From Ancylobacter lacus (lineage in GTDB: Bacteria; Pseudomonadota; Alphaproteobacteria; Rhizobiales; Xanthobacteraceae): 62,206 nt of DNA. Positions within the stretch are counted from its first letter, which is position 1. Every line of letters begins with the position of its first letter. The stretch lies in the NCBI RefSeq assembly GCF_018390635.1, contig NZ_JAHBGE010000079.1, positions 1 to 62,206 of the forward strand. The letters are read 5' to 3'. The notes beneath the pieces were generated by a model. It was not told where the DNA came from and searched no databases. It worked only from the letters and a program-made list of their open reading frames with translations. The translations under genes were made by a program, and so were the position numbers. Positions 9,203 to 62,206 of the stretch are shown in pieces.

Positions 9203-10687
9203 ATGACACTGCCATCTCTTGAGCGCGTCGAAATTAGGCCAAAAGCAGCCGGCACGCCCGCGAGCGTGCCGCCGGGCGTGCTGGGGCTTGGGGCTCTTAC
9301 CGCCGTCGTCATCGGGTCGATGATCGGGTCTGGCGTCTTCAATCTCCCGCAAAACCTCGCGGCCGGCGCCGGCCCGCTCGCCATCATCATCGGCTGGACG
9401 ATCAGCGGCATCGGCATTCTGGCTCTGGCCTTCGTCTACCAGGGTCTTTCCATCCGGAAGCCGGAGCTGAATTCGGGCCCATATGCCTACGCCAAGGCGG
9501 GGTTCGGACCCTTCGTCGGGTTCAACAGCGCCTGGGGCTACTGGCTCTCCGCATGGATCGGCAACGTCTCCTATGCGGTGGTGCTGTTCAGCGCCCTGTC
9601 CTACTTCTTCCCGCCGTTCGGCAACGGCAATACTTGGCAGGCGGTCATCGGAGCCTCAGCCGTCCTCTGGCTGATCCACAGCCTGATCCTCTCGGGCGTG
9701 AAGCAAGCCGCCTTCGCGAACGTCATCACCACGGTTGCGAAGATCGCGCCAATCGTCGTGTTCATCGCCCTTGCGATCGTCGCCTTCCGGCTGGACGTGT
9801 TCACGCTGGATTTCAACGGCCTCGCAACGCCCGGTCCCGGAACGATCCTCGATCAGGTCAAGAGCACTATGCTGATTACCCTTTGGGTCTTCATCGGCAT
9901 TGAAGGGGCGAGTGTCGTCTCCGGCCGTGCGCGCCGGCGCAAGGACATTGGCGTCGCCACGTTTGCCGGTTTCGTCACCACCCTGTTGATCTACGCGCTC
10001 GTGTCTCTGCTTTCTCTGGGCATCATCAGCCGGCCGGAACTCGCCGTCCTGAAGAACCCCTCAATGGCGGGCGTGCTCGAGCATGTCGTCGGCCCATGGG
10101 GGGCTGTGCTGATCAATGTCGCCCTCGTGGTTTCCGTCCTCGGTGCCTTTCTGGCCTGGACGCTGCTTGCGGCGGAAGTGCCCTATGCGGCCTCGCGCGA
10201 TGGGACGATGCCGCGGTTCTTCGGTTGGGAAAACAAGGCTGGAACGCCGGCCACGTCATTGTGGATCACCAACGGCCTGGTCCAGCTCTTCCTGATCCTG
10301 ACGCTGATCGCCAACAGCACCTATCTTTCGCTGCTCAACATCGCCTCGACAGCCATTCTGATCCCCTACACCTTTTCGGGCGCCTATGCGCTGAAACTGG
10401 CTATCTCGGGCGAAGCCTACAAGCCCGGCGAGCGCCGTGTCCGAGACATGATCGCGGGCGCCGTTGCCACGGTCTATGGCATCTGGCTCGTCTATGCCGC
10501 AGGGCCGACCTATCTGCTGATGGTCGCCATGCTCTATGCGCCCGGCATCGGCATCTATGTCTGGGCCCGGCGCGAGAGCGCCGAAAAAATCTTCACTCCC
10601 ATCGAGATCGCCATCGCCGTCGGGATCGCCATTGCCGCGATCACCGCCGCCTGTCTCATCTGGAACGGAAGTATCAGCCCCCTATGA
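9203..10687 (+). CDS. arcD: Arginine/ornithine antiporter
   Basis: This 494-residue membrane protein of the APC superfamily (basic amino acid antiporter subfamily) has about 12-13 helices. The first helix contains the amino-acid binding motif [14 protein letters not shown], where the GSG loop is typical. It would exchange external arginine for ornithine, feeding the arginine deiminase pathway encoded by the next three genes. I chose the ATG at 9203 because the upstream part of the open frame is arginine- and proline-rich and unlike the family. The stop codon overlaps the arcA start (ATGA), so the two are coupled. Confidence 0.88.
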
Positions 10688-11922
10688 ACGCGATCGCCAC
10701 GACCCAGATCGGCGCCTATTCCGAGGTCGGCAAGCTGCGGGAAGTCCTCGTCCACCGCCCCGACCTCAGCCTGCAACGACTGACGCCCGACAACTGCAAG
10801 GCCCTGCTGTTCGACGATGTCCTGTGGGTGAAGAAGGCCCGACAGGAGCACGACGTCTTCGTCGATGCGCTGCGCGAGCGCGGGGTCGGCGTGATAGATC
10901 AGGGCCAGTTGCTGGCGGACATCGTTGCCATTCCAGCGGCGCGCCAATGGCTGCTCGATCGCCGCGTCAGCGCGGAGACGGTTGGCACGGATCTGGTCGA
11001 CGAAATGCGGGGCTGGCTGGATGGGATGTCTGCCACGGAACTCGCTCGCCTCCTCGTCGGCGGCGTGGCGCGCGCCGAACTGGCGTTCAAGCCGGCCGGC
11101 CTCGCCGGGCGGACCCTGGCGCCGCAAGATTTCGTGCTGCCGCCTTTGCCCAACCAGTTGTTCACCCGCGACAGCTCCTGCTGGATCTACGGGGGCGTCA
11201 CCATCAACGCCATGTATTGGCCGGCGCGCCGCCCGGAAGCACTCAACCTCGCGGCGATCTACACGTTTCACCCGCGCTTCGCGGACGCGACCTTTGAAAC
11301 ATGGTGGGACGGTTCCGACGCCGCCCCCGGCATCGCGACGCTGGAGGGCGGCGACGTTATGCCGCTTGCCGACGGCCTCGTGCTGATCGGCATGGGTGAG
11401 CGCACCACACCGCAGGCGGTCTCCATGCTGGCCGCTCGGCTGTTCGCCGCCGGCACGGCAACGCGCGTACTTGCCGCGCTGATGCCGCGCGACCGCTCGT
11501 TCATGCATCTCGACACCATCTTCACCTTCTGCGATCGCAATCTGGTGACGGTCTATCCGCCAATCGTCGACCGCATCCGGACGTTTTCCCTGCGGCCCGG
11601 CGATAAAGCCGGTGTTCTGGACATCGTGGAGGAAACCGGGCCCTTCATCGATGTCGTGAAGCAGGCCCTGGGGCTCGATGAACTGCGGGTCATTGCGACT
11701 GGCGGCGATGGTTACGAAGCTGAGCGCGAGCAATGGGACGACGGCAACAACCTGCTCGCCATCGAGCCCGGTCTGGTCATCGGCTACGACCGCAACGTGT
11801 ACACCAATACCTTGCTTCGGCATGCGGGCGTTGAAGTGATCACCATAGAAAGCTCCGAGCTGGGCCGTGGCCGGGGGGGAAGCCATTGCATGTCCTGCCC
11901 GATCAGCCGCGATGCTCTCTAG
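10684..11922 (+). CDS. arcA: Arginine deiminase
   Basis: This 412-residue enzyme hydrolyses arginine to citrulline and ammonia, the first step of the ADI pathway. Family motifs are [12 protein letters not shown] at the N-terminus, [20 protein letters not shown], the catalytic histidine in HLDTIFTF, and the catalytic cysteine in [13 protein letters not shown] near the C-terminus. The length matches the family. It overlaps arcD by 4 bp and is followed after 15 bp by arcB with a good AGAGAAGG site. The pathway produces ATP without respiration and ammonia that can buffer acid. Confidence 0.95.
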
Positions 11923-48844: not shown

Positions 48845-49735
48845 ATGTCCGACTATTCGATCTGGGTGTGCGAATATTCCTACGTCAAGAACTACCACAA
48901 GAGCGGCGTGCTCTACGGCGCGCATAACCAGGGTTTCGTCAAGCTTCCCTACTGCTACGTCGTCATCAAGGGCCGCGATCATGTCGCGATGGTCGATGTC
49001 GGCTACAGCGACAAGGACTATGGCAAGGTCCTGGGCGATCGCTTCGGTGTCGAGAACTGGCGCAATCCCACCACGGTTCTCGCCGAGATCGGGGTGAAGC
49101 CGGAAGAGGTGGACACCTGCTTCATCACCCACGCGCATTTCGATCATTTCGGCAATGTCGAGGACTTCCCGAACGCCAAATTCTACATTCAGGAACGCGA
49201 GATCGCGAAATGGGTCTGGGCGATGTCGCTGCCCGATCGGCTGCGCTGGATGATGGTGGCGGTCGATCCCGGCGACATCGTGCGCGGCGCCGATCTCGCC
49301 CGGCAGAAGCGCCTCGTCACCGTGAACGGCGCGGTGAGCGACGTGCTGCCCGGCATCGACCTGCACGCGGCCGATGACAGCCACACCTGGGGCTCCATGT
49401 GGGTCACGGTGCGCAACGACGGGAAGACGGCCTCGCAGGACAGCTGGGTGCTGGCGGGCGACCTCGTCTATGTCTTCGAGAACATCCACGGCCCCGGCGC
49501 GGCGGTGGACGAGAAGGAAGTCTACACCCCGGTGGGCCTCGCGGTCGGCAGCCAGGCCAATCTGGTGCTCGCCACCGAGGCGATGATGAAGCAGGTCAAT
49601 TACGACTCCCACCGCGTCATTCCGGTGCATGAGGAGCGCCTGCGCGACACCTTCCCCTCGCGCATCACCCGCGAGGGGCTGCGGATCACCGAGATCTGCC
49701 TCGCCGACGGCGAAACCTCGAAGGTGTCGGCATGA
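48845..49735 (+). CDS. MBL-fold hydrolase, N-acyl-homoserine-lactonase-like
   Basis: The 296-residue protein has the metallo-beta-lactamase zinc motif HxHxDH in ITHAHFDHFGN, followed by WVLAGDLVYVFEN (bridging Asp) and VIPVHEE (last His ligand). The overall plan (VAMVDVGYSDKDYG, IQEREIAKW) resembles AiiA-type lactonases. In this operon, hydrolysis of a sugar lactone is more plausible than quorum quenching; this is inference from neighbours. The start has GGAAGGAAACG upstream. It overlaps the next gene by 4 bp. Confidence 0.82.
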   Translation: MSDYSIWVCEYSYVKNYHKSGVLYGAHNQGFVKLPYCYVVIKGRDHVAMVDVGYSDKDYGKVLGDRFGVENWRNPTTVLAEIGVKPEEVDTCFITHAHFDHFGNVEDFPNAKFYIQEREIAKWVWAMSLPDRLRWMMVAVDPGDIVRGADLARQKRLVTVNGAVSDVLPGIDLHAADDSHTWGSMWVTVRNDGKTASQDSWVLAGDLVYVFENIHGPGAAVDEKEVYTPVGLAVGSQANLVLATEAMMKQVNYDSHRVIPVHEERLRDTFPSRITREGLRITEICLADGETSKVSA

Positions 49736-50712
49736 CGCGCCCGGCCCCCGTCGCGGCCCCGATCACGCCCCCGCCGGCCGCCCATGCCGTCGCCATCGTC
49801 GGCGCCGGACTGGTCGGCTCCGGCTGGGCGCTGGTGTTCGCCCGCGCGGGACTGCGGGTCCAGATCTACGATCCCGTCGCCGGGGTGCGCGCCGGCATCC
49901 CGGCCTGGGCGCGGGAGAGCGCGGCCGCGCTGGCCGGGGCCGGGCTGATCGCGGATGTCGAGGCGGTGATCGGCCGGCTCCATGTGGTCGACACGCTGGA
50001 GGCGGCGCTCGCGGGCGCCACCTATGTGCAGGAATCCGTTTTCGAGCGGGTGGAGGTGAAGCGCGACATCTGCCGCGCCATCGACGCCGCGATGGCGCCG
50101 GAGACGATCGTCGGCTCCTCCTCCTCCGGCATTCCCGCCTCGCGCTTCACCGAGGGCTGCACCCACCGCGGGCGCTTCCTCATCGCCCATCCGGTCAACC
50201 CGCCGCATCTCGCCCCCGTGGTCGAGCTGGTGCCGGCGCCCTGGACGGAGGCCGCCGCGCTGGCGGGGGCGCGCGAGCTGATGCTGGCGGTCGGGCAGGT
50301 GCCGGTGGCGCTCACCCGCGAGATCGACGGCTTCATCCTGAACCGCCTCCAGGGCGCGCTGCTGAACGAGGCCTGGGCGCTCTATGACGAGGGCTATGCC
50401 GGGCTCGCCGACATCGACGCCACCATTGCCCATGGGCTCGGGCTGCGCTGGGCCTTCATGGGGCCGTTCGAGACGATCGACCTGAACGCGCCCGGCGGCA
50501 TTGTCGATTATGCCGCCCGGCTCGGCGGCATGTACCACGCCATGGCGCAGAGCCGCACGCCGCGCGCCTGGCCGGAAGACACCATCCGCCGCGCCGGCGA
50601 GGAGCGGCGCCGCGCGCTTCCCGAAACGGAGCTCGCCGCCCGCCGGGCCTGGCGCGACCAGGCGCTGACCGGCCTCGCCGCCTTCAAGAAGGCCAGCGGG
50701 CTCGCTCCCTAG
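49732..50712 (+). CDS. 3-hydroxyacyl-CoA dehydrogenase-like NAD-dependent dehydrogenase
   Basis: The 326-residue enzyme has an N-terminal Rossmann domain ([21 protein letters not shown]), catalytic His in [20 protein letters not shown], and a C-terminal helical domain with [21 protein letters not shown]. Relatives with this pattern include L-gulonate 3-dehydrogenase and carnitine dehydrogenase as well as 3-hydroxybutyryl-CoA dehydrogenases. The HPVNPPH context is typical of the non-CoA group, so oxidation of a hydroxy acid (a sugar acid) is likely here. It overlaps the MBL gene; the HisD-like gene follows after 56 bp. Confidence 0.82.
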
Positions 50713-50768
50713 CCCGCCGCCCTTCCCTTCCCGCCTTCGAGACACACCTGAACGTAAGGACCAGCACC

Positions 50769-52079
50769 ATGGCCGTAACCCATTTGAAGCGCGGCAAGCC
50801 TGCCGAGGAGCGCTCGCAGGACGACCGCAAGGTTCGCGAGACGGTCGAGACCATCCTCGCCGATATCGAGGCGCGCGGCGATGCGGCGGTGCGCGAGCTG
50901 TCGGAGAGGTTCGACCGCTATTCGCCGCCGGCCTTCCGGCTGACGCTGAGCGAGATCGAGGCGCTGATGGCGCGGGTCTCGACGCGGGATATGGAGGACA
51001 TCCGCTTCGCGCAGGCGCAGGTGCGCAATTTCGCGCAGGCCCAGCGCAATTCGATGACGGATATCGAGATCGAGACGCTGCCCGGCGTCATTCTCGGCCA
51101 CAGGAACATCCCGGTGCAGTCGGTCGGCTGCTATGTGCCGGGCGGCAAGTTTCCCATGGTCGCCTCGGCCCACATGTCGGTGCTGACCGCCGCGGTGGCG
51201 GGCGTGCCGCGCATCGCCGCCGCCACCCCGCCGTTCAAGGGAGAGCCCAACCCGGCGGTGATCGCCGCCATGCATCTGGGCGGCGCCCACGAGATCTACG
51301 TGATGGGCGGCATCCAGGCCGTCGGCGCGCTGGCGATCGGAACCGAAACCATCGCCCCGGTCGACATGCTGGTCGGCCCCGGCAATGCCTATGTCGCCGA
51401 GGCCAAGCGCCAGCTCTATGGCCGCGTCGGCATCGACCTGTTCGCCGGTCCCACCGAGACCATGGTGATCGCCGACGACACGGTGGATGGCGAGATCTGC
51501 GCGACCGATCTGCTCGGGCAGGCCGAGCACGGCTACAACTCGCCGGCTGTTCTGGTCACCAACAGCCGCCGGCTGGCCGAGGACACGCTCGCCGAGATCG
51601 ACCGCCTGCTCGGGCTCCTGCCGACCACCGATACCGCGACCAGGTCGTGGGCCGACTATGGCGAGGTCATCCTGTGCGACACCCATGAGGAGATGCTGGA
51701 GGTCGCCAACGACATCGCCTCCGAGCACGTCCAGGTCATGACCGACCGCGACGACTGGTATCTCGCCAACATGCACTCCTATGGCGCGCTGTTCCTCGGC
51801 CCCCGCACCAATGTCGCCAATGGCGACAAGGTGATCGGCACCAACCACACGCTGCCCACCCACAAGGCCGGGCGCTATACGGGCGGGCTCTGGGTCGGCA
51901 AGTTCCTGAAGACGCACAGCTACCAGAAGATCACCACCGACGAGGCGGCGGCGACGATCGGCGCCTACGGTTCGCGGCTGTGCCTGCTGGAAGGCTTCGT
52001 CGGTCACGCCGAGCAGTGCAATGTGCGGGTGCGCCGCTACGGGCGCAAGAACGTGCCCTATGGCGAGGCCGCGGAATGA
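50769..52079 (+). CDS. HisD-like NAD-dependent alcohol dehydrogenase (histidinol dehydrogenase family)
   Basis: The 436-residue protein is a histidinol dehydrogenase homologue outside any his operon. [17 protein letters not shown] (a variation on the HisD VPGG start) and [12 protein letters not shown] are conserved. Zn ligands and catalytic residues appear as Gln and His in LLGQAEHG, Glu-His in ASEHVQVMT, Asp in [15 protein letters not shown] and His in GFVGHAEQ. Such paralogues include HpsN, which oxidises (R)-dihydroxypropanesulfonate to an acid in two steps. A four-electron oxidation of a primary alcohol to a carboxylate is therefore the likely chemistry. The stop overlaps the SDR start. 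Confidence 0.85.
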
Positions 52080-52837
52080 GCGCCGCCGCGCCCCCGTTCC
52101 GGCTCGACGGGCGCCGGGTGCTGGTCACGGGTGCGGGGCGCGGCATCGGCCTCGCCATCGCCCGGGCCTGTGCCGCCTCGGGCGCGGAGGTCACGCTCTG
52201 CGCCCGCTCGGCGGACGAGATCGGCGCGGCGGCGGAGGCCCTGCGCGGGGAGGGCCTGAAGGCGGAGGCCCTGCCCGCCGACGTCACCGATGTGGCGGGG
52301 TTTGCCGCGCTCATCGCCGCCCTGCCGGCCTTTGACGCGTTCGTCAACAATGCCGGCACGAACCGGCCGAAGCCGCTCGCCGACGTGACGGTCGAGGATT
52401 ACGACGCCGTGCTGGGGCTGAACCTGCGCAGCGCCATCTTCGCCGCGAAGGCGGTGACCGCCCGCATGATCGAGGCGGGGCGCGGCGGATCGGTGATCAA
52501 CATGTCCTCGCAGATGGGCCATGTCGGCGCGGCCAGCCGCACGCTCTACTGCGCCTCGAAATGGGGGCTGGAGGGCTTCACCAGGGCGCTGGCGGTGGAG
52601 CTGGCGCCGCACCGCATCCGCGTCAACACCATCTGCCCGACCTTTGTCGAGACGCCGATGACGGAGCCCTATTTCCGCGACCCCGCCTTTCGCGCCGAGG
52701 TGCTGGGGAAGATCCCGCTCGGCCGCGTGGGCCGGGTGGAGGAGGTGGCGGCGGCGGCGGTGTTCCTCGCCAGCGAGGCCGCCGCCCTGATGACCGGCAG
52801 CGCGCTGATGCTGGATGGCGGCTGGACGGCGCTGTGA
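52076..52837 (+). CDS. Short-chain dehydrogenase/reductase (SDR)
   Basis: The 253-residue classical SDR has TGAGRGIG (cofactor), NNAG, the catalytic Ser in INMSSQMG and YCASK. The C-terminus ([13 protein letters not shown]) is standard. It is the last gene of the operon, coupled to the HisD-like gene by ATGA overlap. The same HisD-plus-SDR pairing is seen in polyol and sulfonate catabolic loci. It probably oxidises a secondary alcohol of the transported substrate or an intermediate. Confidence 0.87.
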
Positions 52838-53243
52838 GCCCGGCCGGGCGGTGCCGGTCCGTCTCCCGGCGGGCCGCCGACAGCGAGAGCCGCACGGCAG
52901 CGGAGGCGCGGGCGAAGCGCGCCCGCGCCGCTGGACCGCGATCTCTGAACCGCTATTCTCGATCTGCCCGGATCCCTTTGGAAACAAAGGCGATTCGGGC
53001 CGTCGGGGGTGCATCGAAAGGGCGGTCTCGCTCAGAACAGGGCGAGCGGGTCCGGGTTTTTTCGCGGGCGCCGGCGGCGTTGGCCGGAAAAGCGCACGAT
53101 GTTCTCATCGTGCCGATCCGTGAAGCTCAGTTATGTGGACATCGCCGCGCGGGGGCAGATTGGCCTCGATGCGGCGCAGGTAGGCTTCACATTGTTCCTT
53201 GCCGTTGCCGAAGCGGGCGATGTCGACGACCCTTTCCACGGCG
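52838..53243. other. Intergenic region with hairpins between the SDR gene and the cas9 pseudogene
   Basis: The 406 bp have no complete gene. On the plus strand GCCCGGAT...ATTCGGGC (about 52967-53000), enclosing CCTTTG-GAAA-CAAAGG, forms an extended hairpin. A smaller CTCGC/GCGAG stem and a T6 run (about 53058-53063) follow. This could be a terminator of the catabolic operon or a relic of a Cas9-linked RNA such as tracrRNA. About 53105-53240 on the minus strand reads like a protein fragment (FGNGKEQCEAYLRRIEANLPP) of unknown family. Confidence 0.4.
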
Positions 53244-56200
53244 TCAGGCCCCCGGCTTCGGCTTGCGAGCGGGAAAGCCGGGATCGAGGACGCGGCCGAG
53301 CTCATCGATGCGCACCTGCCGCGCCTTCCAGCGCCGCAGCGAGCCCGGCGAGCCATAGACGTAGCGGAAGGGGTCGCTCTTGTCGGCGTCGCGCGCCTTC
53401 AGGCTGCCCGCCTCCTGCGGCGGGGCGAGCACGAGCGTGCCGCCGGAGAACTTCGCCACCCGCATCAGCTCGCGCGCGCCCTCGCGCTCGATGGCCACGA
53501 CGTCGTTCTGCTGGAGCGAGAGGACCTTGCGCGCGGTCGGGTTGTCGCGGCGGGTCGGCGATGTCCTGTCCCGCTGGTGCGCCTCGAACATCGAGACGAC
53601 CTCGTCCTTCCACACGCCGGTCTTCAGTTCCCAGACGTCGAAGCGATAATTGGAATCGCCCTTATAGGCCTTGTAGGGGCACCCGCTGCGGTCGCGGATC
53701 GGGATGACGGAGAGCGGCTCGACCACCCGGACACGGCGGATGCCGGGGTAGAGGCGCGGGCCGCGCTCGGGATGGCCGAAGCTGCGCACGGCCTGCTCGA
53801 AGGCGGCGCCTTCCTTGCCGGCGGTCCAGTCCCTGAGCTTCACCCTGAGATCGTCGTCGCGGATCGCCTCGATGTCGGACGGCTTCCGGAATGCGGAGAG
53901 AGGCTTGCGGGTGACGACGATGTCGCGGCCGCTCCTGTCCTTTGCGCCGGTCAGTCCATAGGCGGTCTCGTTGTGGAGCCGGCCCGCGGTGGCGTTGCGG
54001 TCCTTCGGCCGCCCGGCCTTGGCGGCGCTGCCATGGTCGGGGCGATGGCTGACCGTGATGTTGCGCACGATCCGCCCGACCTCGTCGGAGAACCCCTCCC
54101 AGGGATCGGGAATCGCCTCGGCGACCCGGCCCGCCGCCATCAGCCCCTCGCGGCCGGCCTCACGGGCGATGCGGCTGAGGAGGGAGCGATCGGTCACGCC
54201 GACGACGATCGCGTCGATCGCGTGGTGCCGGTGGTCGCGGCGGTTCTTCGGCTGGTCGCCGCCGCCCGAGAGATTGTGGTCGGGCAGGTGGTGATTGAGG
54301 CCCCAGCTTCGGCGCAGCATCTCGGTGAGCCGGCCCGGCGAGACCCAGACATGGCTGGAGCCCTCGCCCTTTTCGGGATAGAGCGCCGACAGATACTCCC
54401 GCGCGAGGCGGGAGAGATATTGCGTGTCGGTGAGATGACGGGCGAGGAAGCCGCCCTTGTCGTTGAACCGGGCCATCGCGTCCGGCTCGAAGCGCCGGCG
54501 TTTCTCGCGCGGGAGGCGCGCCGTGCGCGCGGCGATGGCCTCCCAGCCGGCATCCGGCCCGAAATGGGCGCGCAGGTCGTCCCGGGCTTCATAGGGCGAG
54601 CGGTTGCGCTTGATGCGGTTCACCTCGCGCAGGCAGAGGATGCGGTTGGCGTTGGAATCGTCCAGCGTCTGGCTGAAGGGGAGAATGTGATCGACCTCGA
54701 CGGCACCGGAGAACAGCATCTCCACCGGGATCTGCCGCCCGGTGTAGACGCAGCGCCGGTCGTGCGCATTGTCTTCGTTCAGCTCCTCCCACAGCCTGAG
54801 GATGGCGCGGTTGCCGCCCTTGTCGGCGATGCCCAGCTCGTTCAGCTTTCTTGAGCGCCCCTCCGCCGCCACGCGGTTCCTGCGGTTCCTGTCGTTGACC
54901 TCGCCCTTGCGCTCCGCGTCGAGCTTGAGTTCGCGGGCGAGCTCAATGGCTATCTCTGCCGGCGGCCCGTAGCGGCGGATCAGCGCGTTGAGCACCCGGC
55001 GGAGCTGGTTGAGGCCGATATGCACGGTCGGGTTGGTCAGCCGGCCGAGGCGGAGCGCCTCGTCCTGTTCGTTGGGATCGGCGGTGCCCGGCAGGATGGG
55101 CCGTTCGAGAACGGGCGCCATAATAAGGCAGGGCGGCATGGCCCTTGCCGTCCTGCCAGACCCGCCCGTCGCGGAAATCCGAGTGGTGGCCGAGCCCCGC
55201 CCGCTGCACCGCCTCGCTATAGACGATGACGTCTTTTCCATCTCGGCGATCAGCCGGCGCGTCGCCGTTTCGCCGAAGCGGCCAAAGCCCTCGGCCAGCC
55301 GCACGCGCGTCACGGCCCGGGCCTCCTCGGCCGAGAGGCCGTGCCGTTGCCGCAGCCCATCCGAAGGCGGCCATCTCGGCGTCGCTTTCCAGCCCGTCGA
55401 GGCCGGCGAGGACCTCCCATTGAACGGCAGGATCGAGGCCGAACCAGCGCTTCCCGAAGCGGGTCTTGCCGGCCATCTCGGCGGCGACCTCGTCGCCCTT
55501 CATATCCCTGCGGTTCTCGCCTTCCTTGTTGAAGCGGGCGTCGGGATCGAGCTTGAGCGCCTTGCGAAGGCTTTCATAGGAAACAGACGTGCGCTGGCCC
55601 AGCCTGGAGAGGAGCGCGTCGCGCTCGGCCCGTGAAAGCGCGCGCGCCTCGGCGCCCGGCAGCAGGACGCGCAGCGCATTGACCTCTTCCAGCAGCCGCC
55701 GCCGCTGGAACAGTGGATGCGCCTTGGGCAGGCGCGGCTCCGGCGGCAGCAGGGTGCAGAAGCCGATCCTTCGGCTTCCGGAGCGGGCGCTGGTGGAAGA
55801 TGATCTCGTAGAACTGCGCGCGCGGCTCCTCGGTCAGGACCTCGGGATGGTGCGGGGACTGCGCCTGCCAGATGGCGGCGAACTCGTCTTCCAGCATCTG
55901 GCGGTCGGGGTAGAAATCATAGGCTTCGCTCGCCTTGCCGTCCTCGGCGGTGAGGGTGACGACGCGCGTGCGCACATGGGGAATGGCGTTCGGGTCGTCG
56001 GCGCCAGCCCGCCTTTTGTGGAGGAACGCGCCGAGCGTGCGCGCTTCGGCCTCCTCCATCTGCTCATGGAGCCGGGCGACACCGACGCGGATCGTGCCGG
56101 CGTCGTCCTCGGCGCCGCGATCCGCCTAGCGGTTCGACTTGAAGCCGCGCCGCTGGTTGAGATGGAACAGCGCGCGACCGATCTCCGGCAGCGTCAGCTT

Positions 56201-56400
56201 TTCGTCGAGAGCCCGGGCACGCAAGGCATAGGGGTCGAGCCCGGCCAGCGCCTCGCCGGCCTCCGGATCGGATGGGAACAGACCGGCACGCGTCAGATAT
56301 TTGATCAGCGCCGCCCGGCGCTGCTTGTAGCGGTCGCGCCGGATTTCGGCTCCCCGCCTGAACCGTCGACGCTTCCGCTCGCGCCCCGGCGCGCGGCCGA
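53244..56400 (-). pseudogene. cas9: Type II-C Cas9, multiply broken
   Basis: Read leftwards from about 56400, the arginine-rich region survives (RRDRYKQRRAALIKYL, then ALFHLNQRRGFKSNR). So do RuvC-II (PPAEIAIELARELK), the HNH nuclease (VDHILPFSQTLDDSNANRILC...NRIKRN), RuvC-III (HHAIDAIVVGV) and a C-terminal PAM-interacting part ending at 53244. The gene is dead. RuvC-I and the true start are missing. An in-frame TAG replaces the codon after KSNR (56126-56128), and frameshifts occur near 55768, 55345, 55232 and 55112. No cas1, cas2 or CRISPR array is present in the window. The last 1.9 kb remain open, so the decay is fairly recent. Confidence 0.88.
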
Positions 56401-56456
56401 TCAGGTTCCTGCACCCCCGTCGGGCCGCCCCCCGGCCTTGGGCCTACCGGCCGGCC

Positions 56457-59400
56457 TTAGCTGGAAGCCCACACATCCTGGAGATAGCGGCGGGAGGCCT
56501 CCAGCTCGGCCAGCGCCGGGGCGCCGAGGATGTCGGCGAAGGCCGCCCGCACATCGGGCGCCATGGTGCGGGCGTTGCCGCAGATCAGCACCGAGCCGCC
56601 GCGGCGCACCATCTCCCCGACCACGTCGGCATGGGTGCGCAAGAGGTCCTGCACATAGGTCTTGGGGGTGCCGGCGCGGCGCGAGAAGGCGACGGCGAGC
56701 AGGTTCAGCGTGCCGTCGTCCCGGTAGGCCTCCAGTTCCTCGCGATAGAGATAGTCGCTCTCGTTCCGGCACCCGAAGAACAGCAGGACCGGCCCCACCG
56801 CCACGCCCTGTTCCCGCAGGGCGTGGCGCTCCTGTATGAAGCCGCGCAGCGGCGCGATGCCGGTGCCGGGACCCACGAGGATGAGCGGCACGGCCGGATC
56901 GTCCGGCAGCTGGAAGGAGCTGCCCGTGTCCTTCACCGCCACCCGCAGCGCCGTTCCCTCGGCACAGCCGGCGAGATAGGTGCTGCACAACCCCTCCTCC
57001 ACGCGGCCGTCCGCGCAGGCGAAGCGGTGCGCCCCCACGGTGAGGGTGCAGGCGTCGGGCGACAGCCGCGGCGAGGAGGAGATGGAGTAGTAGCGCGGCT
57101 TCAGGCCGGGCCGCAGGCCCAGCAGCGTGGCGAGCTCGAGCCGGACGGAAGGCACCTGCGCCAGCAGGTCCATCATGCGCGGCTTGCCGGCGGCGAGGCC
57201 GGGGAAGTCCTCCAGCCACTGCGCGATCTGCTCCCGATCCGGCGGGCACCGGGCGGCCCTGGCCCATGCCCTGAGGTCGCGCCGCGTCACCGGGCCGGCA
57301 AGGTCGACATGCTCGGCGAGCAGTTCGCCCACCCGCACCGGCACGCCGAAGGGCAGGCCGCCGCCGTTTTCCGCCGCCGGCCCGAGGGCGGTGAGGATCA
57401 CGCTTGCCTCCGCGTCGAGGCCGCAGCGTTCCGCCGCCGCGGCCACGAGGGCGGGGGGATTGCAGGGGAACACGCCGAGATGGTCCCCGGCGGCATAGGT
57501 GACGCCCGCCGGCAAGGGCAGCTCGATATGCCGGGTCGAGCCGGACGCGCCGGGCGCCTGCAGCTCCCGGTTGACGCGCACCGCGCTGACCACGGCGCCG
57601 GCATCCGGCGCGCTGGCACGGCGCGGCGCCTCCCCCGCCGCCGCGACGGCGCCATGCGCCACCTCCACCCCGATCGCCGGCGCCTCCACCGCCTCGCCCT
57701 CCGGCGCGAGCCCGGCAAAGGCGCGGTCGAGCGCGGGCCACAGGGCGGCGGTCCAGCTCTCCACCGCGGATTCGAAATCGCCGTCCGCATCCGCCGCGCC
57801 GGTGTCCAGAAGCGGCGTGCCGCCGCGCGCCGCCAGACCCTCGGCAATGGTGCGGGGGAACTTCTGGAAGGTCTGGCGCCACTGCGCATTGCCGCAGCCC
57901 AGCACCGCGAAGCGCAGGCCGGCGCAGGCGTCCGGTGGGGCGCTGTCCAGCCAGCGGGCGAAGCCGGCGGCATTATCCGGCGGCGCGCCATTATAGGTGG
58001 AGGTGACGATGACCACCGGCCCGTCCGCCGGCCAGGGCTGGCCGGCCTGCGTGTCCAGCTCCGCCACGCGCGGGGCAAAGCCACGGCTGGCCGCCTCGCG
58101 GGCGAGGCCGGAGGCGATGTCGCGGCAGCCGCCCATGTTGGAGCCGTACAGCACGCTCATCGGCCGGCCCGCCGCGGCCACCGGCTCGGGCGCCGGCTCG
58201 GCCCTGGCGGGCGCCTTCCGCACGGGGAAACGGCCCTTCACCTCGGGGCGGCGCTCCAGCAGCATCTCCAGATGATCCGGCTTCACGGTGAGCGCCTGCT
58301 TGTGGCGCAGCACGTAGTGCGGATCCTTCGGGCGGGCGACGAAGCGCTGGATGAAGCGGGCCAGCACCATGCGCGCTTCCAGCAGGGCGAACTGGAAGCC
58401 GATGCAGGAGCGCAGGCCCATGCCGAAGGGATGGTAGGCATCGCGGTGGTGCGTGTTCTCCTCCCCGGGCAGAAAGCGGTCGGGGCGGAAGGCATGGGCA
58501 TCCGGCCCCCAGAAGCGCGGATGGGTCTGCATCGTCGTCAGCGACACGAACATGCGCTCGCCGGCCTTCACCTCGTAGCGCCCGTTGCCCACCGTGGTGT
58601 CGCGGGTGACATGGCGCGGGAAGACCGGCACCGGCGGGCAGAGCCGCAGCGCCTCCTTCAGCACGCGCTGGGTGTAGTCGAGCCGGCCGCAATCCTCATA
58701 GGTCGGGACGTAGGAGAAGTCGCGCCCCAGCACCTCGTCCACCTCGGCAATGAGCTTTTCCAGCACCTCCGGGTGCTTCCAGAGAAAGTAGAGCGCGTAG
58801 GAGAGCATCCCGCTCGTGGTCTCGTGCCCCGCGATCAGGAGCACGATGAGCTGGCCGCGAATATTGTCGTCCGGCAGCTTCAGCCCGGTGACGCGGTCCG
58901 GCGTGGTGAGCATCACCTGCAGCAGGTCGGTGGGCACCGCCTCGCCGCGGGCCATGCGGTCGCGGCGGTCGCGGATGATCGCGTTCACGTCGTCCAGCAT
59001 GATCCGGTCGGCGGCCGCGCGCTGGCGGCGGGCCTCGTGGTAGAAGATCTCCGGCAGGACACGCCTGGTCTCCTGCATGGCGTCGTCCAGAACCCGGTTC
59101 ATCGCCTCCACGAAGGGAGGCAGGGCCGGGGAATCGATGGCGCCGTAACGCTTGTCGAAGGCGGCGTAGGAGATGGCCTCGAAGGTCATCCGGGTCATCA
59201 GGTCGGTGACCAGGAAGCCGGTGTCGGGCCCCAGCCGGTCGAGATGCGCCAGCAGGTCGTCCGCCACCTCGACGATGCGGCCATAGTAGTTCTTCAGCGC
59301 CGCCGAGCCGAAGGCGGGGGCGAGGATGCGGTGGGCGCGGTGCCACAGGGGATCGTCGTCGCTGGCCGTGAACAGCGCGCTGCCGACACTCTTTTCCGCG

Positions 59401-59897
59401 AGGTTGCCGAGGCCGCCCCGGCCATCCACCACCTTGGCGAAGACATCGGGCGCCGCGCACATCTCCGAGACGATATCGGCATCGGCGCAGAAATAGCCTT
59501 TGCCGGCGGGCGCCGAGAAGGCGAAGAACGTGCCGTGCTTGGCGTGGAGATCGGCCAGCGCGCCCACGAGGCCGCCGGGATGGCGCAGTTCCGGCAGATT
59601 GCCGAGGAGCGGATAGGGCCTCGGGCCGGGCACCACGCCATGGCCGGGCGCGGCGCCCTCGCCCTGCGTGACGAGGTTCAGCCGCGTACCGTCGGGAATG
59701 CTGTCGTCCAGCGCGACGGCGGTGCCGTCCGGCGTTTCCACATGGAAGGCGGCTCCGGCCGACAGCCGCGCCGCCGCCCGCACCGCCTCGACCACCGCCT
59801 CCCGGCTGGCCCCGGGAAACCAGCCGACCCGCACGTTGCCGGCGGCACCGCCGAGCTCGATGGTCTTGAGGGCAGGCGCGGACTCGGTGGTGGACAT
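56457..59897 (-). CDS. Self-sufficient cytochrome P450-NADPH reductase fusion (CYP102 type) with extra N-terminal domain
   Basis: The 1146-residue enzyme joins a P450 (about residues 88-540) to a diflavin reductase, as in P450 BM3. The I-helix is AGHETTSG, the ExxR motif is KEALR, and the heme loop FGMGLRSCIG places the ligand at Cys498. FMN domain from about 580 (VLYGSNMGG); FAD binding RYYSISSSP; NADPH motifs GPGTGIAPLRGF and FFGCRNESDYLYREEL. CYP102 enzymes hydroxylate fatty acids near the omega end. The first about 87 residues form an added small domain (VRVGWFPG, FHVETPDGTAVALDDSIPDGT) not found in BM3. GGAGG precedes the ATG. It is third in an operon with a glycosyltransferase and an exporter. 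Confidence 0.92.
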   Translation of the reverse strand: MSTTESAPALKTIELGGAAGNVRVGWFPGASREAVVEAVRAAARLSAGAAFHVETPDGTAVALDDSIPDGTRLNLVTQGEGAAPGHGVVPGPRPYPLLGNLPELRHPGGLVGALADLHAKHGTFFAFSAPAGKGYFCADADIVSEMCAAPDVFAKVVDGRGGLGNLAEKSVGSALFTASDDDPLWHRAHRILAPAFGSAALKNYYGRIVEVADDLLAHLDRLGPDTGFLVTDLMTRMTFEAISYAAFDKRYGAIDSPALPPFVEAMNRVLDDAMQETRRVLPEIFYHEARRQRAAADRIMLDDVNAIIRDRRDRMARGEAVPTDLLQVMLTTPDRVTGLKLPDDNIRGQLIVLLIAGHETTSGMLSYALYFLWKHPEVLEKLIAEVDEVLGRDFSYVPTYEDCGRLDYTQRVLKEALRLCPPVPVFPRHVTRDTTVGNGRYEVKAGERMFVSLTTMQTHPRFWGPDAHAFRPDRFLPGEENTHHRDAYHPFGMGLRSCIGFQFALLEARMVLARFIQRFVARPKDPHYVLRHKQALTVKPDHLEMLLERRPEVKGRFPVRKAPARAEPAPEPVAAAGRPMSVLYGSNMGGCRDIASGLAREAASRGFAPRVAELDTQAGQPWPADGPVVIVTSTYNGAPPDNAAGFARWLDSAPPDACAGLRFAVLGCGNAQWRQTFQKFPRTIAEGLAARGGTPLLDTGAADADGDFESAVESWTAALWPALDRAFAGLAPEGEAVEAPAIGVEVAHGAVAAAGEAPRRASAPDAGAVVSAVRVNRELQAPGASGSTRHIELPLPAGVTYAAGDHLGVFPCNPPALVAAAAERCGLDAEASVILTALGPAAENGGGLPFGVPVRVGELLAEHVDLAGPVTRRDLRAWARAARCPPDREQIAQWLEDFPGLAAGKPRMMDLLAQVPSVRLELATLLGLRPGLKPRYYSISSSPRLSPDACTLTVGAHRFACADGRVEEGLCSTYLAGCAEGTALRVAVKDTGSSFQLPDDPAVPLILVGPGTGIAPLRGFIQERHALREQGVAVGPVLLFFGCRNESDYLYREELEAYRDDGTLNLLAVAFSRRAGTPKTYVQDLLRTHADVVGEMVRRGGSVLICGNARTMAPDVRAAFADILGAPALAELEASRRYLQDVWASS

Positions 59898-59950
59898 GGG
59901 GGCCTCCTGGCGGCCGGATGCGGTCAGCGTTCGCGGTGCGGCGACACGGC

Positions 59951-61207
59951 TCAGCCCCCGCGCGCCGGAACGGCGGCAAGGGCCTCGATCGCCGCCACGG
60001 TGCGGGCCATGTCGCGGTCGGGGTCGATCTCCCGGGCGACCGCCCGCGCCCGCGCGGCGAACGCCGGGTCCTCCAGCACGGCGCGCAGGCTCCTTTCCAG
60101 CGTGTCGCGGTTGACACTGGTGCGGGGCAGCACCGCGCCCACGCCCAGGCGGCGCATCCGCATGGCGTTGTCGGGCTGGTCGAAGGCGAACGGAATGGTC
60201 AGCACCGGAACGCCTGCCCGCAGCGCCTCGGCGCAGCCGCCGACGCCGCCGTGCTGCACCACGGCGGCGGCATGGGGAAACAGGCTGGAATGGGGGGCGT
60301 AGTCGAGCGCCAGCACCTTGTCGGCCGGCGCGTCCGGCCGCGGGTTGTTGCCCATCAGCAGGATGGCGCGGCGCCCGAGCGCCAGCGCCGTCTCCGCCGC
60401 GACCTTGTAGAAGTCGTGCGCCAGATGGACCACCGTGGTGCCGAGGGTGAAGACCACCGGGGGCGGCCCTGCCGCCAGGAAGGACGCGATCCGGGCGGCC
60501 GTTTCGGGGTCGGCTTCCTGCGTGAAGAAGGGAAAGCCGGTCTGGACGGACGCGGCCGGCCAGTCCCGCTGGGGCGCCCCGAAGGCGGGCGGGAACAGCA
60601 CCAGCACCAGATGCGGCGAGAACTTGTCGGTGAACACGATGTCGCCGGTGCCCACCCCCATCTCGCGCTGAAGCGCCAGCAGCGGCGCGCCCCAGCGCGT
60701 GACCTGCCGGCGGATGACGCGGAACATCAGCCGCTGCGGCCAGGCCCCGAGATGGCGCAGATGGTAGCCCGCGGGAAACCAGGTGAGCACGCTCGGGTCG
60801 AGCGCCGACATCATGGTGGAAGGCGCGAGCATGACGCTGGCCCAGGGCAGGCCGCGCCGCGCCGCCACCAGCGGCGCGACATAGACCAGCTCGCCCACGA
60901 CGAGGGCATCCGCGCCCTCGGTGGCGGCGAGCAGGTCGTCGAAGGTCGCGCGCGTCTGGGGAAAGACGGTGTCGTGATAGAGGCGGCGCCCGCCATGCAC
61001 CGGGTCGCCGAAAATCTCCATCAGCACCTCAGGGGAGAAGTCCGGCCGCAGGGGATGGAAGTCGAGGCCGAGCGCGGCGACGCGCGGGCCGTAGGAAGCC
61101 GGCGCCGCGATCACCGGGGTGTGGCCGCGTGCGCGCAGCGCCTGCGCGATCGCCAGCAGGGGGTAGAGATCCCCGAAGGATCCGAGCGTGGCGAGGACAA
61201 TGCGCAT
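59951..61207 (-). CDS. GT1-family glycosyltransferase (UDP-sugar: lipid or natural product)
   Basis: The 418-residue GT-B enzyme begins RIVLATLGSFGDLYPLLAIAQALRARGHTP, typical of the RhlB/sterol-glucosyltransferase/macrolide group, and has the nucleotide-sugar motif QHGGVGGCAEALRAGVPVLTIPFAFDQPDNA. The ATG at 61207 overlaps the stop of the exporter gene; a GTG three bases upstream is an alternative. It lies between an MFS exporter and a fatty-acid-hydroxylase-type P450, so a hydroxylated fatty acid is a likely acceptor. This is inference; the sugar is unknown. Confidence 0.86.
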   Translation of the reverse strand: MRIVLATLGSFGDLYPLLAIAQALRARGHTPVIAAPASYGPRVAALGLDFHPLRPDFSPEVLMEIFGDPVHGGRRLYHDTVFPQTRATFDDLLAATEGADALVVGELVYVAPLVAARRGLPWASVMLAPSTMMSALDPSVLTWFPAGYHLRHLGAWPQRLMFRVIRRQVTRWGAPLLALQREMGVGTGDIVFTDKFSPHLVLVLFPPAFGAPQRDWPAASVQTGFPFFTQEADPETAARIASFLAAGPPPVVFTLGTTVVHLAHDFYKVAAETALALGRRAILLMGNNPRPDAPADKVLALDYAPHSSLFPHAAAVVQHGGVGGCAEALRAGVPVLTIPFAFDQPDNAMRMRRLGVGAVLPRTSVNRDTLERSLRAVLEDPAFAARARAVAREIDPDRDMARTVAAIEALAAVPARGG

Positions 61208-62160
61208 CACGACACCGCCTTGACGACATCCGGCGCGGCCGATGGCTTTCCGCGCATCAGCAGCAGCGCCGCGAGCAGACCCAGCGCCACCATGCCGGTT
61301 CCCACATAATAGCCCTCCGCGATGCTTCGGGCAGCACTCAGACGCAGCGCGGAGGCGACGGCCGGCCAGTGTTCCACCAGCGCCCGCACCGCCTCCTCCC
61401 GGCCGTAGACGGCCTGTTCCATCAGGCTTTCGAGCTGCGTGCGGGCCGCCCCTTCCGGCGCGGCCTCGGCCGCGATGGCGAGGAAGCGGCTGCGCTCGAG
61501 CCCGGCGACCACGGTGCCGATCGCCGCCATGCCCATGGCGCCGCCGAGCTGCCGCACCGTGTCGAGCGCGCCGAAGCCCCGGCCCCGCTGGCCTTCCGCC
61601 ACGCGCGAGGTGCCGTCGGTGTAGGTCTGCGACACCCCGAGCCCCACGCCGGCGCCGATGACGATGAGGGCGGGGAACATCAGCAGGAAGTCGACCCGTA
61701 TCAGCGCCTGCGTCTCCCAGAGCAGCCCGAGGGTCGCCAGCGCCATGCCCGTCGCCACCGGCAGCCGTGCGCCGTAGCGGTCATACAGCATGCCGGAAAG
61801 CGGGGCGCAGATCATCAGCGGCACAAGGAACAGCAGCATGGCAAGGCCGGACTGCAGCGGCGTGAAATGCAGGATGCGCTGGAGATAGATCGCGCCGAAG
61901 GCGGACTGGCCGACAAGGGCGCTCTGGGCGCAGAACAGCACGATGCTGTCGGCGGCGAACTGCCGGTCCCGGAACAGCGCCATGTCCACCAGCGGTTCGC
62001 CCGCGCGACGCTGCGCCCGGAGGAACACGGCGAGCAGCACCACGCCGACGGCGACGAGGGAGATGGTGAGCGGCGAGGCCCAGCCCCAGGCATGGCTTTG
62101 CTGCAGGCCGAGCACCATGGGCCCGAGCGCCGCCGCCAGCAGCAGGCTGTAACCGGGCCG
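61207..62160 (-). pseudogene. MFS exporter (DHA2/EmrB type), C-terminal part, interrupted at the right edge
   Basis: About 317 residues of the C-terminal half are present. LLLAAALGPMVLGLQQSHAWGWASPLTI is a family-like helix 7-8 region; ALFRDRQFAADSIVLFCAQ and GAGVGLGVSQTYTDGTSRVAEGQRGRGFGALDTVRQLGGAMGMA are typical of 14-helix DHA2 drug/lipid exporters. The natural sequence stops near 62160, where a different sequence with the look of an insertion-sequence end begins. The N-terminal half is therefore missing or separated by the element. It would have been the first gene of the exporter - glycosyltransferase - P450 operon, so the insertion may also cut the operon from its promoter. Confidence 0.75.
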
Positions 62161-62206
62161 AGGCTGTGTGAGAACTCTGTGGCTCGTCGCGCAGGTTGTT
62201 GCCACG
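62161..62206. mobile_element. Insertion-sequence end at the right edge (IS1182-like, tentative)
   Basis: The last 46 bases start AGGCTGTGTGAGAACTCTGTGG, unlike MFS coding sequence. A GGCTGTGTGA(A/G)AACTC start is familiar from terminal repeats of IS1182-type elements. No transposase is visible. The identity is from memory. Confidence 0.45.

What the first reader, a model, noticed from the sequence alone, without database searches (positions are those of the whole stretch)
56457..62160. Candidate bacterial glycolipid cluster: fatty-acid P450 (CYP102 type), GT1 glycosyltransferase and MFS exporter in one operon
The sequence shows three tightly packed leftward genes: a DHA2-type exporter overlapping a GT1 glycosyltransferase, and 53 bp later a P450-reductase fusion with all BM3-type motifs. 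Yeast sophorolipid and ustilagic-acid loci combine a fatty-acid-hydroxylating P450, a UDP-glycosyltransferase and a transporter. A bacterial version would make a glycosylated hydroxy-fatty acid (biosurfactant). I know of no described system of this layout in Alphaproteobacteria.
Basis: partly seen in the sequence, partly recalled or inferred. Interest (0 to 1): 0.75.

Follow-up and report, generated by a model that had tools for sequence, protein, structure and literature searches.

The report
Sophorolipid-style glycolipid cassette in bacteria
A three-gene unit that recurs in at least four bacterial genera, coding for a self-sufficient P450 with a predicted ubiquitin-like front domain, a sugar transferase and an exporter-type pump, likely makes and secretes a sugar-linked hydroxy-fatty-acid surfactant in the style of yeast sophorolipids; in this strain the pump gene is cut in two, apparently by a mobile element.

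Summary
In detail: P450-reductase fusion (56457-59897, -), GT1 glycosyltransferase (59951-61210, -), DHA2-like exporter (61207-62159, -). The exporter is interrupted at 62160 by an IS-like repeat; its other half is on contig C67. The genes are a conserved unit: same order and strand in all nine loci read in full, from four genera, almost without shared flanking DNA; in the genus, P450 and GT are both present in 6 of 30 genomes and both absent in 24. New here: an N-terminal P450 domain of about 85 residues, modelled as a ubiquitin-like, perhaps PB1-like, beta-grasp. It is kept in 82 of 120 listed homologues; none of 17 CYP102-type loci without it that I read has the GT or exporter beside it. 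The GT is related to RhlB of rhamnolipid synthesis, though source names of its homologues are mixed. Best reading: the P450 hydroxylates an acyl chain, the GT adds a sugar (probably glucose; this genome has no rmlD over cut-off), the exporter secretes a glycolipid. Substrate, sugar and product are untested. Detoxification by oxidation, glycosylation and export is the main rival.

The parts
56457..59897 (-). self-sufficient cytochrome P450-diflavin reductase fusion, 1146 aa
   Evidence: ORF; Pfam p450/Flavodoxin_1/FAD_binding_1/NAD_binding_1; PDB BM3-type full-length hits from residue 87-89 on
59634..59897 (-). N-terminal ubiquitin-like (possibly PB1-like) domain of the P450, residues 1-88
58248..59633 (-). 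heme domain, residues 89-550 (F176 = BM3 F87; AGHETT; heme Cys498)
56460..58166 (-). FMN/FAD/NADPH reductase part, residues 578-1146
59951..61210 (-). GT1-family, RhlB-related glycosyltransferase, 419 aa
   Evidence: AF2 model pLDDT 94.2, GT-B fold
61207..62159 (-). 3' part of DHA2-like MFS exporter gene (the 5' part is on contig C67:53-646)
62155..62159 (.). GGGCC, repeated beside the other IS-like end on C67: likely target duplication
62160..62206 (+). end of an IS-like repeat that interrupts the exporter gene and ends the contig
   Evidence: same 24 bp at the ends of contigs C4 and C20; inverted end on C67

Best explanation
The three genes are a conserved unit, probably a transferable operon, that likely makes and exports a glycosylated hydroxy-fatty acid: the P450-reductase would hydroxylate an acyl chain, the RhlB-related transferase would attach a sugar (probably glucose) to it, and the EmrB-like pump would secrete the product. 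Shown: gene order, linkage, the near absence of shared flanking DNA, catalytic motifs of the P450, relatedness of the GT to RhlB, and interruption of the exporter here. Predicted from a model: the P450's N-terminal domain has a ubiquitin-like beta-grasp fold. Inferred: substrate, sugar, product, export, transfer between genomes, and that this domain holds the P450 in oligomers or beside the GT, as PB1 domains do. Compared with rhamnolipid synthesis, the P450 would take the place of RhlA as the source of the hydroxyl that receives the sugar; compared with sophorolipid synthesis, a one-chain bacterial P450 would replace CYP52 and its separate reductase. In this strain the exporter is interrupted, so secretion through it is probably lost.
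For: Linkage: MFS-GT-P450 in the same order and strand in nine of nine fully read loci; GT and P450 both present in 6 of 30 and both absent in 24 of 30 genus genomes. Flanks (up to 6 kb a side, compared as DNA) share no stretch of 200 bp or more, except 206 bp directly upstream of the MFS in one pair and one 233-bp stretch at unlike places in another, so the three genes look like a travelling unit. Specificity: of 24 genomes of the order with a self-sufficient P450 that lacks the front domain, 17 loci were read and none has the GT or MFS within 4 kb. P450: F176 (the BM3 F87 position) kept in 80 of 82, AGHETT and heme Cys kept. GT: 7 of 120 listed homologues (52-56% identity) are named 'rhamnosyltransferase subunit B'; 36.7% identity, 162 bits to the RhlB-like GT of Burkholderia arboris, whose neighbours pass the EmrB (TIGR00711) and rhamnosyltransferase (TIGR01556) cut-offs. 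The same neighbourhood, rhl genes with an EmrB/QacA transporter, is reported for B. thailandensis (PMC2804600, passages). RhlB homologues can give glucolipids: Pantoea ananatis (PMC4863597 and PMC8171317, passages). Sophorolipid logic P450 + UGT + exporter: PMC4384140, passages.
Confidence: 0.45

Rival explanations
1. A detoxification module: the P450 oxidises a foreign hydrophobic compound, the GT masks it with a sugar and the pump removes it (phase I, II and III in one operon).
For: Same three activities in one unit; rifamycin- and macrolide-type GTs and DHA2 efflux pumps are the top named profiles; 13 of 120 GT homologues are named YjiC-type; patchy presence in 6 of 30 species and almost no shared flanking DNA fit a mobile resistance-like cassette.
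Against: GT scores are far below the inactivation-family cut-offs, and a Burkholderia RhlB-like GT gives the same weak hits. The F87-type pocket residue is kept.
Confidence: 0.3
2. The operon decorates a terpenoid, sterol- or carotenoid-like lipid rather than a fatty acid.
Against: No neighbour beyond the triplet is shared as DNA between loci, so no terpenoid gene is linked in common. The GT paralogues of the genus and order form a separate, supported clade.
Confidence: 0.11
3. The operon modifies acyl signals such as N-acyl homoserine lactones by hydroxylation and glycosylation, for signalling or quorum quenching.
For: BM3-type P450s are recalled to hydroxylate N-acyl homoserine lactones (from memory); such substrates lack a carboxylate, which fits the missing R47/Y51 anchor.
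Against: No neighbour beyond the triplet is shared as DNA, though the flanks were not scanned for luxI/luxR-type genes as such; glycosylated signals of this kind are not known to me.
Confidence: 0.07

Closest known systems
Yeast sophorolipid cluster (Starmerella bombicola; CYP52M1, UGTA1, UGTB1, AT, MDR)
   Same: P450 plus glycosyltransferase plus exporter in one cluster (PMC4384140, passages)
   Different: Eukaryotic; CYP52 with separate reductase (recalled); two glucosyltransferases, an acetyltransferase and an ABC exporter. Here: P450-reductase fusion, one GT, MFS exporter.
Rhamnolipid rhl clusters (RhlA-RhlB-EmrB/QacA-RhlC; Burkholderia, Pseudomonas)
   Same: RhlB-related GT beside an EmrB-like MFS
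   Different: RhlA, the maker of the lipid acceptor, and RhlC are missing from the triplet; a P450 stands in their place; GT identity to the Burkholderia RhlB-like GT only 37%; own genome has no rmlD over cut-off.
Pantoea ananatis RhlA/RhlB glucolipid (ananatosides)
   Same: RhlB-family GT, with glucose on a hydroxy-fatty-acid lipid (PMC4863597, PMC8171317, passages)
   Different: works with RhlA; no P450 mentioned in the passages seen.
CYP102A1 (P450 BM3) and other CYP102-type self-sufficient P450s
   Same: heme domain plus diflavin reductase in one chain; F87-type, I-helix and Cys motifs
   Different: extra N-terminal ubiquitin-like domain; own supported clade (with two rows that lack the domain), 35-41% heme identity to 14 canonical forms in the sample; linked to GT and MFS.
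PB1 and other ubiquitin-like interaction domains
   Same: beta-grasp model; conserved Lys/Arg in strand 1 and acidic loop
   Different: no Pfam match over cut-off; fused to a bacterial P450, which I know from no described system.

Membership tests
CYP102-type self-sufficient P450 | P450 heme domain fused to FMN/FAD/NADPH reductase in one chain | tested here: met
CYP102-type self-sufficient P450 | I-helix AGHETT and heme-Cys signature | tested here: met
   A356, T360, C498 in 82 of 82; E359 in 80 of 82 (D in 2)
CYP102-type self-sufficient P450 | F87 pocket residue | tested here: met
   F176 in 80 of 82 UBL forms (numbering of BM3 recalled)
CYP102-type self-sufficient P450 | BM3 carboxylate anchor R47/Y51 (a BM3 feature, not family-defining: most forms without the front domain in the sample lack it too) | tested here: not met
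   G132/K133 and F136 at these places in the window; Y or F at 135 in 81 of 82 UBL forms
CYP102-type self-sufficient P450 | more than 40% heme identity to CYP102 (naming rule, recalled) | tested here: inconclusive
   35-41% to 14 canonical forms; BM3 itself was not in that alignment
RhlB rhamnosyltransferase | GT1/GT-B enzyme of the EryCIII-like type | tested here: met
RhlB rhamnosyltransferase | groups with RhlB in a tree | tested here: inconclusive
   triplet clade and RhlB group are separate supported groups; the branch between them is open; no macrolide-GT reference rows included
RhlB rhamnosyltransferase | operon partner RhlA | tested here: not met
   the GT's direct neighbours are MFS and P450 in nine of nine loci; wider flanks were compared as DNA only
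RhlB rhamnosyltransferase | dTDP-L-rhamnose supply (rmlD) | tested here: not met
   own genome best 64.9 bits against cut-off 224.05; 27 of 30 genus genomes have it, including all 5 other triplet carriers
Sophorolipid-type cluster | P450 + UDP-sugar GT + exporter co-located | tested here: met
   (layout only; donor sugar not known)
Sophorolipid-type cluster | product is a glycosylated hydroxy-fatty acid | not testable with these tools
   needs chemistry
Ubiquitin-like / PB1 domain (N-terminus of P450) | beta-grasp fold | tested here: met
   predicted model only
Ubiquitin-like / PB1 domain (N-terminus of P450) | PB1 motifs (Lys in strand 1; acidic OPCA loop; recalled) | tested here: inconclusive
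   K/R11 in 79 of 80, D/E57 in 70, D/E65 in 74; Pfam PB1 only for 1 of 12 members at E 0.0039
DHA2/EmrB exporter | TIGR00711 efflux_EmrB over cut-off | tested here: not met
   intact relative L066 scores 215.2 against cut-off 230.2: DHA2-like, just outside the curated subfamily

The most novel reading that the evidence does not exclude
A bacterial sophorolipid-type pathway without RhlA, built around a new P450 architecture: a PB1-like ubiquitin-fold domain on a self-sufficient P450 assembles the enzyme into oligomers that hand hydroxylated acyl chains to an RhlB-like glucosyltransferase and a dedicated exporter, all carried as a movable three-gene cassette; the same UBL-P450 in Myxococcota points to a wider, undescribed P450 family.
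Probability: 0.25. Interest if true: 0.82.

Novelty: new variant of a known kind. Interest (0 to 1): 0.6.

Why it matters
If true, bacteria have their own short route to sophorolipid-like surfactants: three genes and a self-contained P450 instead of a CYP52 system with its own reductase, easy to move into laboratory hosts. Apart from the product, a ubiquitin-like domain fused to a CYP102-type P450 is a layout that the searches here did not find in print. It makes a clear question testable: does the domain control oligomer state, electron transfer or partner binding of self-sufficient P450s?

Tried and rejected
Considered and rejected: a chance neighbourhood (nine of nine loci, hardly any shared flanking DNA); a larger cluster with a fourth gene common to the loci (none found when flanks were compared as DNA; protein-level likeness of flanks was not tested); a rhamnolipid in this strain (no rmlD over cut-off; but rmlD does not follow the triplet: 22 of 24 genus genomes without the triplet have it); a viral source (no relative confirmed among 28 pattern matches in IMG/VR); plasmid carriage of the UBL form (5 plasmid P450 records at E <= 1e-100, all under 60% identity and none matching before residue 97).

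Stand-alone copies of the UBL domain: 4 hits, of which P0241 and P0242 read as N-terminal pieces of such P450s and P0243 and P0244 are unclear. Pfam on the domain: nothing over cut-off. PDB profile search: no convincing hit (the lowest E-values are designed proteins). Fold search of the GT cannot tell RhlB from macrolide GTs, as no RhlB structure is among the rows shown. Carotenoid GTs and fungal CYP505 were not compared for want of reference rows. Paper searches for the layout found nothing that describes it: (0, 0, 1, 0 and 2 papers, the three judged unrelated from their titles and abstracts in the listing; 10 of 11 listed; 15 of 29 listed) showed only other topics, judged from the listing. 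PMC12299268 (Rouxiella glucoselipid operon; passages) turned out to use acyltransferases and no GT. One search gave no annotated features; (viral library) mostly repeated the ubiquitin-like result. A motif upstream of the MFS that I first took for a promoter may be coding (see Noticed in passing).

Rows dropped before counts: in the GT tree 4 of 52 rows were dropped (one fragment, three short or partial paralogues), and G008's GT was not put in; in alignment A1 it enters from residue 27 on because of a frame break. L082 (MFS and GT complete, P450 cut by the contig end) is not counted among the nine.
Full report
What is there. The window is the whole contig C79 of a 90-contig genome. Its right end holds three genes on the minus strand. 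A P450-diflavin reductase fusion of 1146 aa lies at 56457-59897, a GT1-family glycosyltransferase of 419 aa at 59951-61210, and the 3' part of a DHA2-like MFS gene at 61207-62159. The MFS stop and the GT start overlap; 53 bp separate GT and P450. Codon comparison with four relatives gives dN/dS of 0.19-0.24 (P450) and 0.17-0.21 (GT), and with three relatives 0.20-0.24 (MFS 3' part), so the genes have been under purifying selection.

The exporter is broken. Homology to intact MFS relatives stops at 62160, where GAGGCTGTGTGAGAAC begins. The same 24 bp stand at the ends of contigs C4 and C20 (the control pattern gave none). The MFS 5' half lies at C67:53-646, next to an inverted copy of that end, and GGGCC is found on both sides. 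This is what one IS insertion with target duplication leaves in a short-read assembly; the element itself was not read.

The triplet is a conserved unit. Among 61 genomes (own, 29 of the genus, 7 of the family, 24 of the order), P450 matches over the full length at 76-82% identity are in five other genus genomes, and GT matches at 80-83% are in the same five. So 6 of 30 genus genomes have both and 24 have neither. In all five others a full MFS gene precedes the GT. A named search returned 17 GT loci. A Rhizobiales MAG has MFS and GT and a P450 cut by the contig end. The other 13, with GTs of 31-46% identity, show no P450 or MFS match at 1e-5 in the DNA held. That makes nine loci read in full (six of the genus, Aquabacter and these two), nine with MFS-GT-P450 in the same order and strand. 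They are the UBL-P450 loci whose DNA I reached. Up to 6 kb of flank on either side, compared as DNA, shares nothing of 200 bp or more between loci, except 206 bp (87%) directly upstream of the MFS in one pair and one 233-bp match at unlike places in another. In the protein database, 13 of the 32 closest P450s have the same longest-contig length as a listed GT homologue (compared by eye). The unit is rare: in even samples, UBL-P450 was found in 4 of 397 genomes of the order and 1 of 385 of the class, the own genome counted in both. A GT match at E <= 1e-60 was found in 4 of 398 of the phylum, the own genome and G008 among them, the other two weak and not examined for neighbours.

The domain tracks the operon. 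In the sample of the order, 28 genomes have a self-sufficient P450 at E <= 1e-150: 4 with the front domain and 24 without. I read 17 of the 24 loci without it; none has a GT or MFS homologue within 4 kb at E <= 1e-4. A heme-domain tree of 39 rows separates the UBL forms (with two rows that lack the domain) from canonical CYP102-type forms at 100/100; one origin of the domain is allowed but not shown.

P450 chemistry. F176, at the place of BM3 F87, is kept in 80 of 82 UBL forms, and the I-helix AGHETT and heme Cys are kept. The BM3 carboxylate anchor R47/Y51 is mostly absent in either group; Y or F stands at position 135 in 81 of 82 UBL forms (BM3 numbering recalled). So the enzyme looks able to oxidise acyl chains, but the head group may be something other than a free acid.

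GT identity. Of 120 listed homologues, 7 (52-56% identity) are called 'rhamnosyltransferase subunit B' by their source and 13 'UDP:flavonoid glycosyltransferase YjiC', among them the two nearest with a functional name (P0141, P0142); such automatic names decide nothing. A locus of Burkholderia arboris holds an alpha/beta-hydrolase, a GT, an MFS over the EmrB cut-off and a GT over the TIGR01556 rhamnosyltransferase cut-off; I read this as an rhl cluster (gene names recalled). The window GT is 36.7% identical to its GT (162 bits). In a 48-row tree the triplet GTs (three of them called so from equal contig lengths) form two supported groups inside a supported 14-row clade with three rows whose neighbours were not read. 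The Burkholderia RhlB-like row sits in another supported group, genus and order paralogues in a third, and the branch order between them is open. No macrolide GT was included as a row. Scores to macrolide and rifamycin-inactivation profiles stay far below cut-off, as they do for the Burkholderia control. The GT model (pLDDT 94.2) matches GtfD and GtfB best.

Sugar. rmlD over cut-off is missing from the window's genome (99.64% complete) but present in 27 of 30 genus genomes, including all five other triplet carriers, and in the two further carriers outside the genus that were tested. Since 22 of 24 genus genomes without the triplet have it too, rmlD says nothing of a link, but it makes rhamnose an unlikely donor in this strain. 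A glucolipid made with an RhlB homologue is known from Pantoea ananatis (PMC4863597 and PMC8171317, passages). I therefore favour UDP-glucose, as inference.

Function. Acyl hydroxylation, glycosylation and export explain the three genes, the RhlB likeness, and the parallel with rhl clusters, where an EmrB/QacA pump accompanies rhl genes (PMC2804600, passages). It is the sophorolipid logic (PMC4384140, passages) with bacterial parts. The chief rival is a detoxification module with the same three steps; nothing computed here excludes it. I give 0.45 to the glycolipid reading and 0.30 to detoxification.

Novelty. P450s of this type, RhlB-like GTs and EmrB-like pumps are each known. Their joint operon, and a ubiquitin-like domain fused to a self-sufficient P450, were not found described in searches of the open library; subscription papers are not covered. 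I class it as a new variant of a known kind.

Noticed in passing
window 53244-56443 (-): Remains of a cas9 gene (TIGR01865) in at least four frame pieces directly beside the P450 gene; no CRISPR-like array in 52000-57000. A decaying type II system next to the cassette.
   Followed up: partly
G000 (whole genome): No rmlD over the TIGR01214 cut-off, unlike 27 of 30 genomes of the genus.
   Followed up: partly
L065:9556-9639 and 9632-10786 (G008, contig of the same length as that of A. polymorphus DSM 2457): The GT gene is split by a frame break near residue 28 (also L083), so a second carrier may have a damaged operon, or the assembly has an error.
   Followed up: no
window 49732-52837 (+): Run of a 3-hydroxyacyl-CoA dehydrogenase-like gene, a histidinol-dehydrogenase homologue and a short-chain dehydrogenase; may be a catabolic operon rather than histidine synthesis.
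   Followed up: no
upstream of the MFS gene in L062-L066, L084, L145: TGGACNAG is invariant in seven upstream regions (TGGACAAG in six). In L062 it reads ATG GAC AAG in frame with the MFS ORF, so it may mark a conserved start or leader and not a promoter.
   Followed up: partly
L086 (candidate division KSB1): A GT of the same broad family (36% identity) sits between two ORFs of 2032 and 2217 aa that look like PKS/NRPS genes (judged by eye).
   Followed up: no
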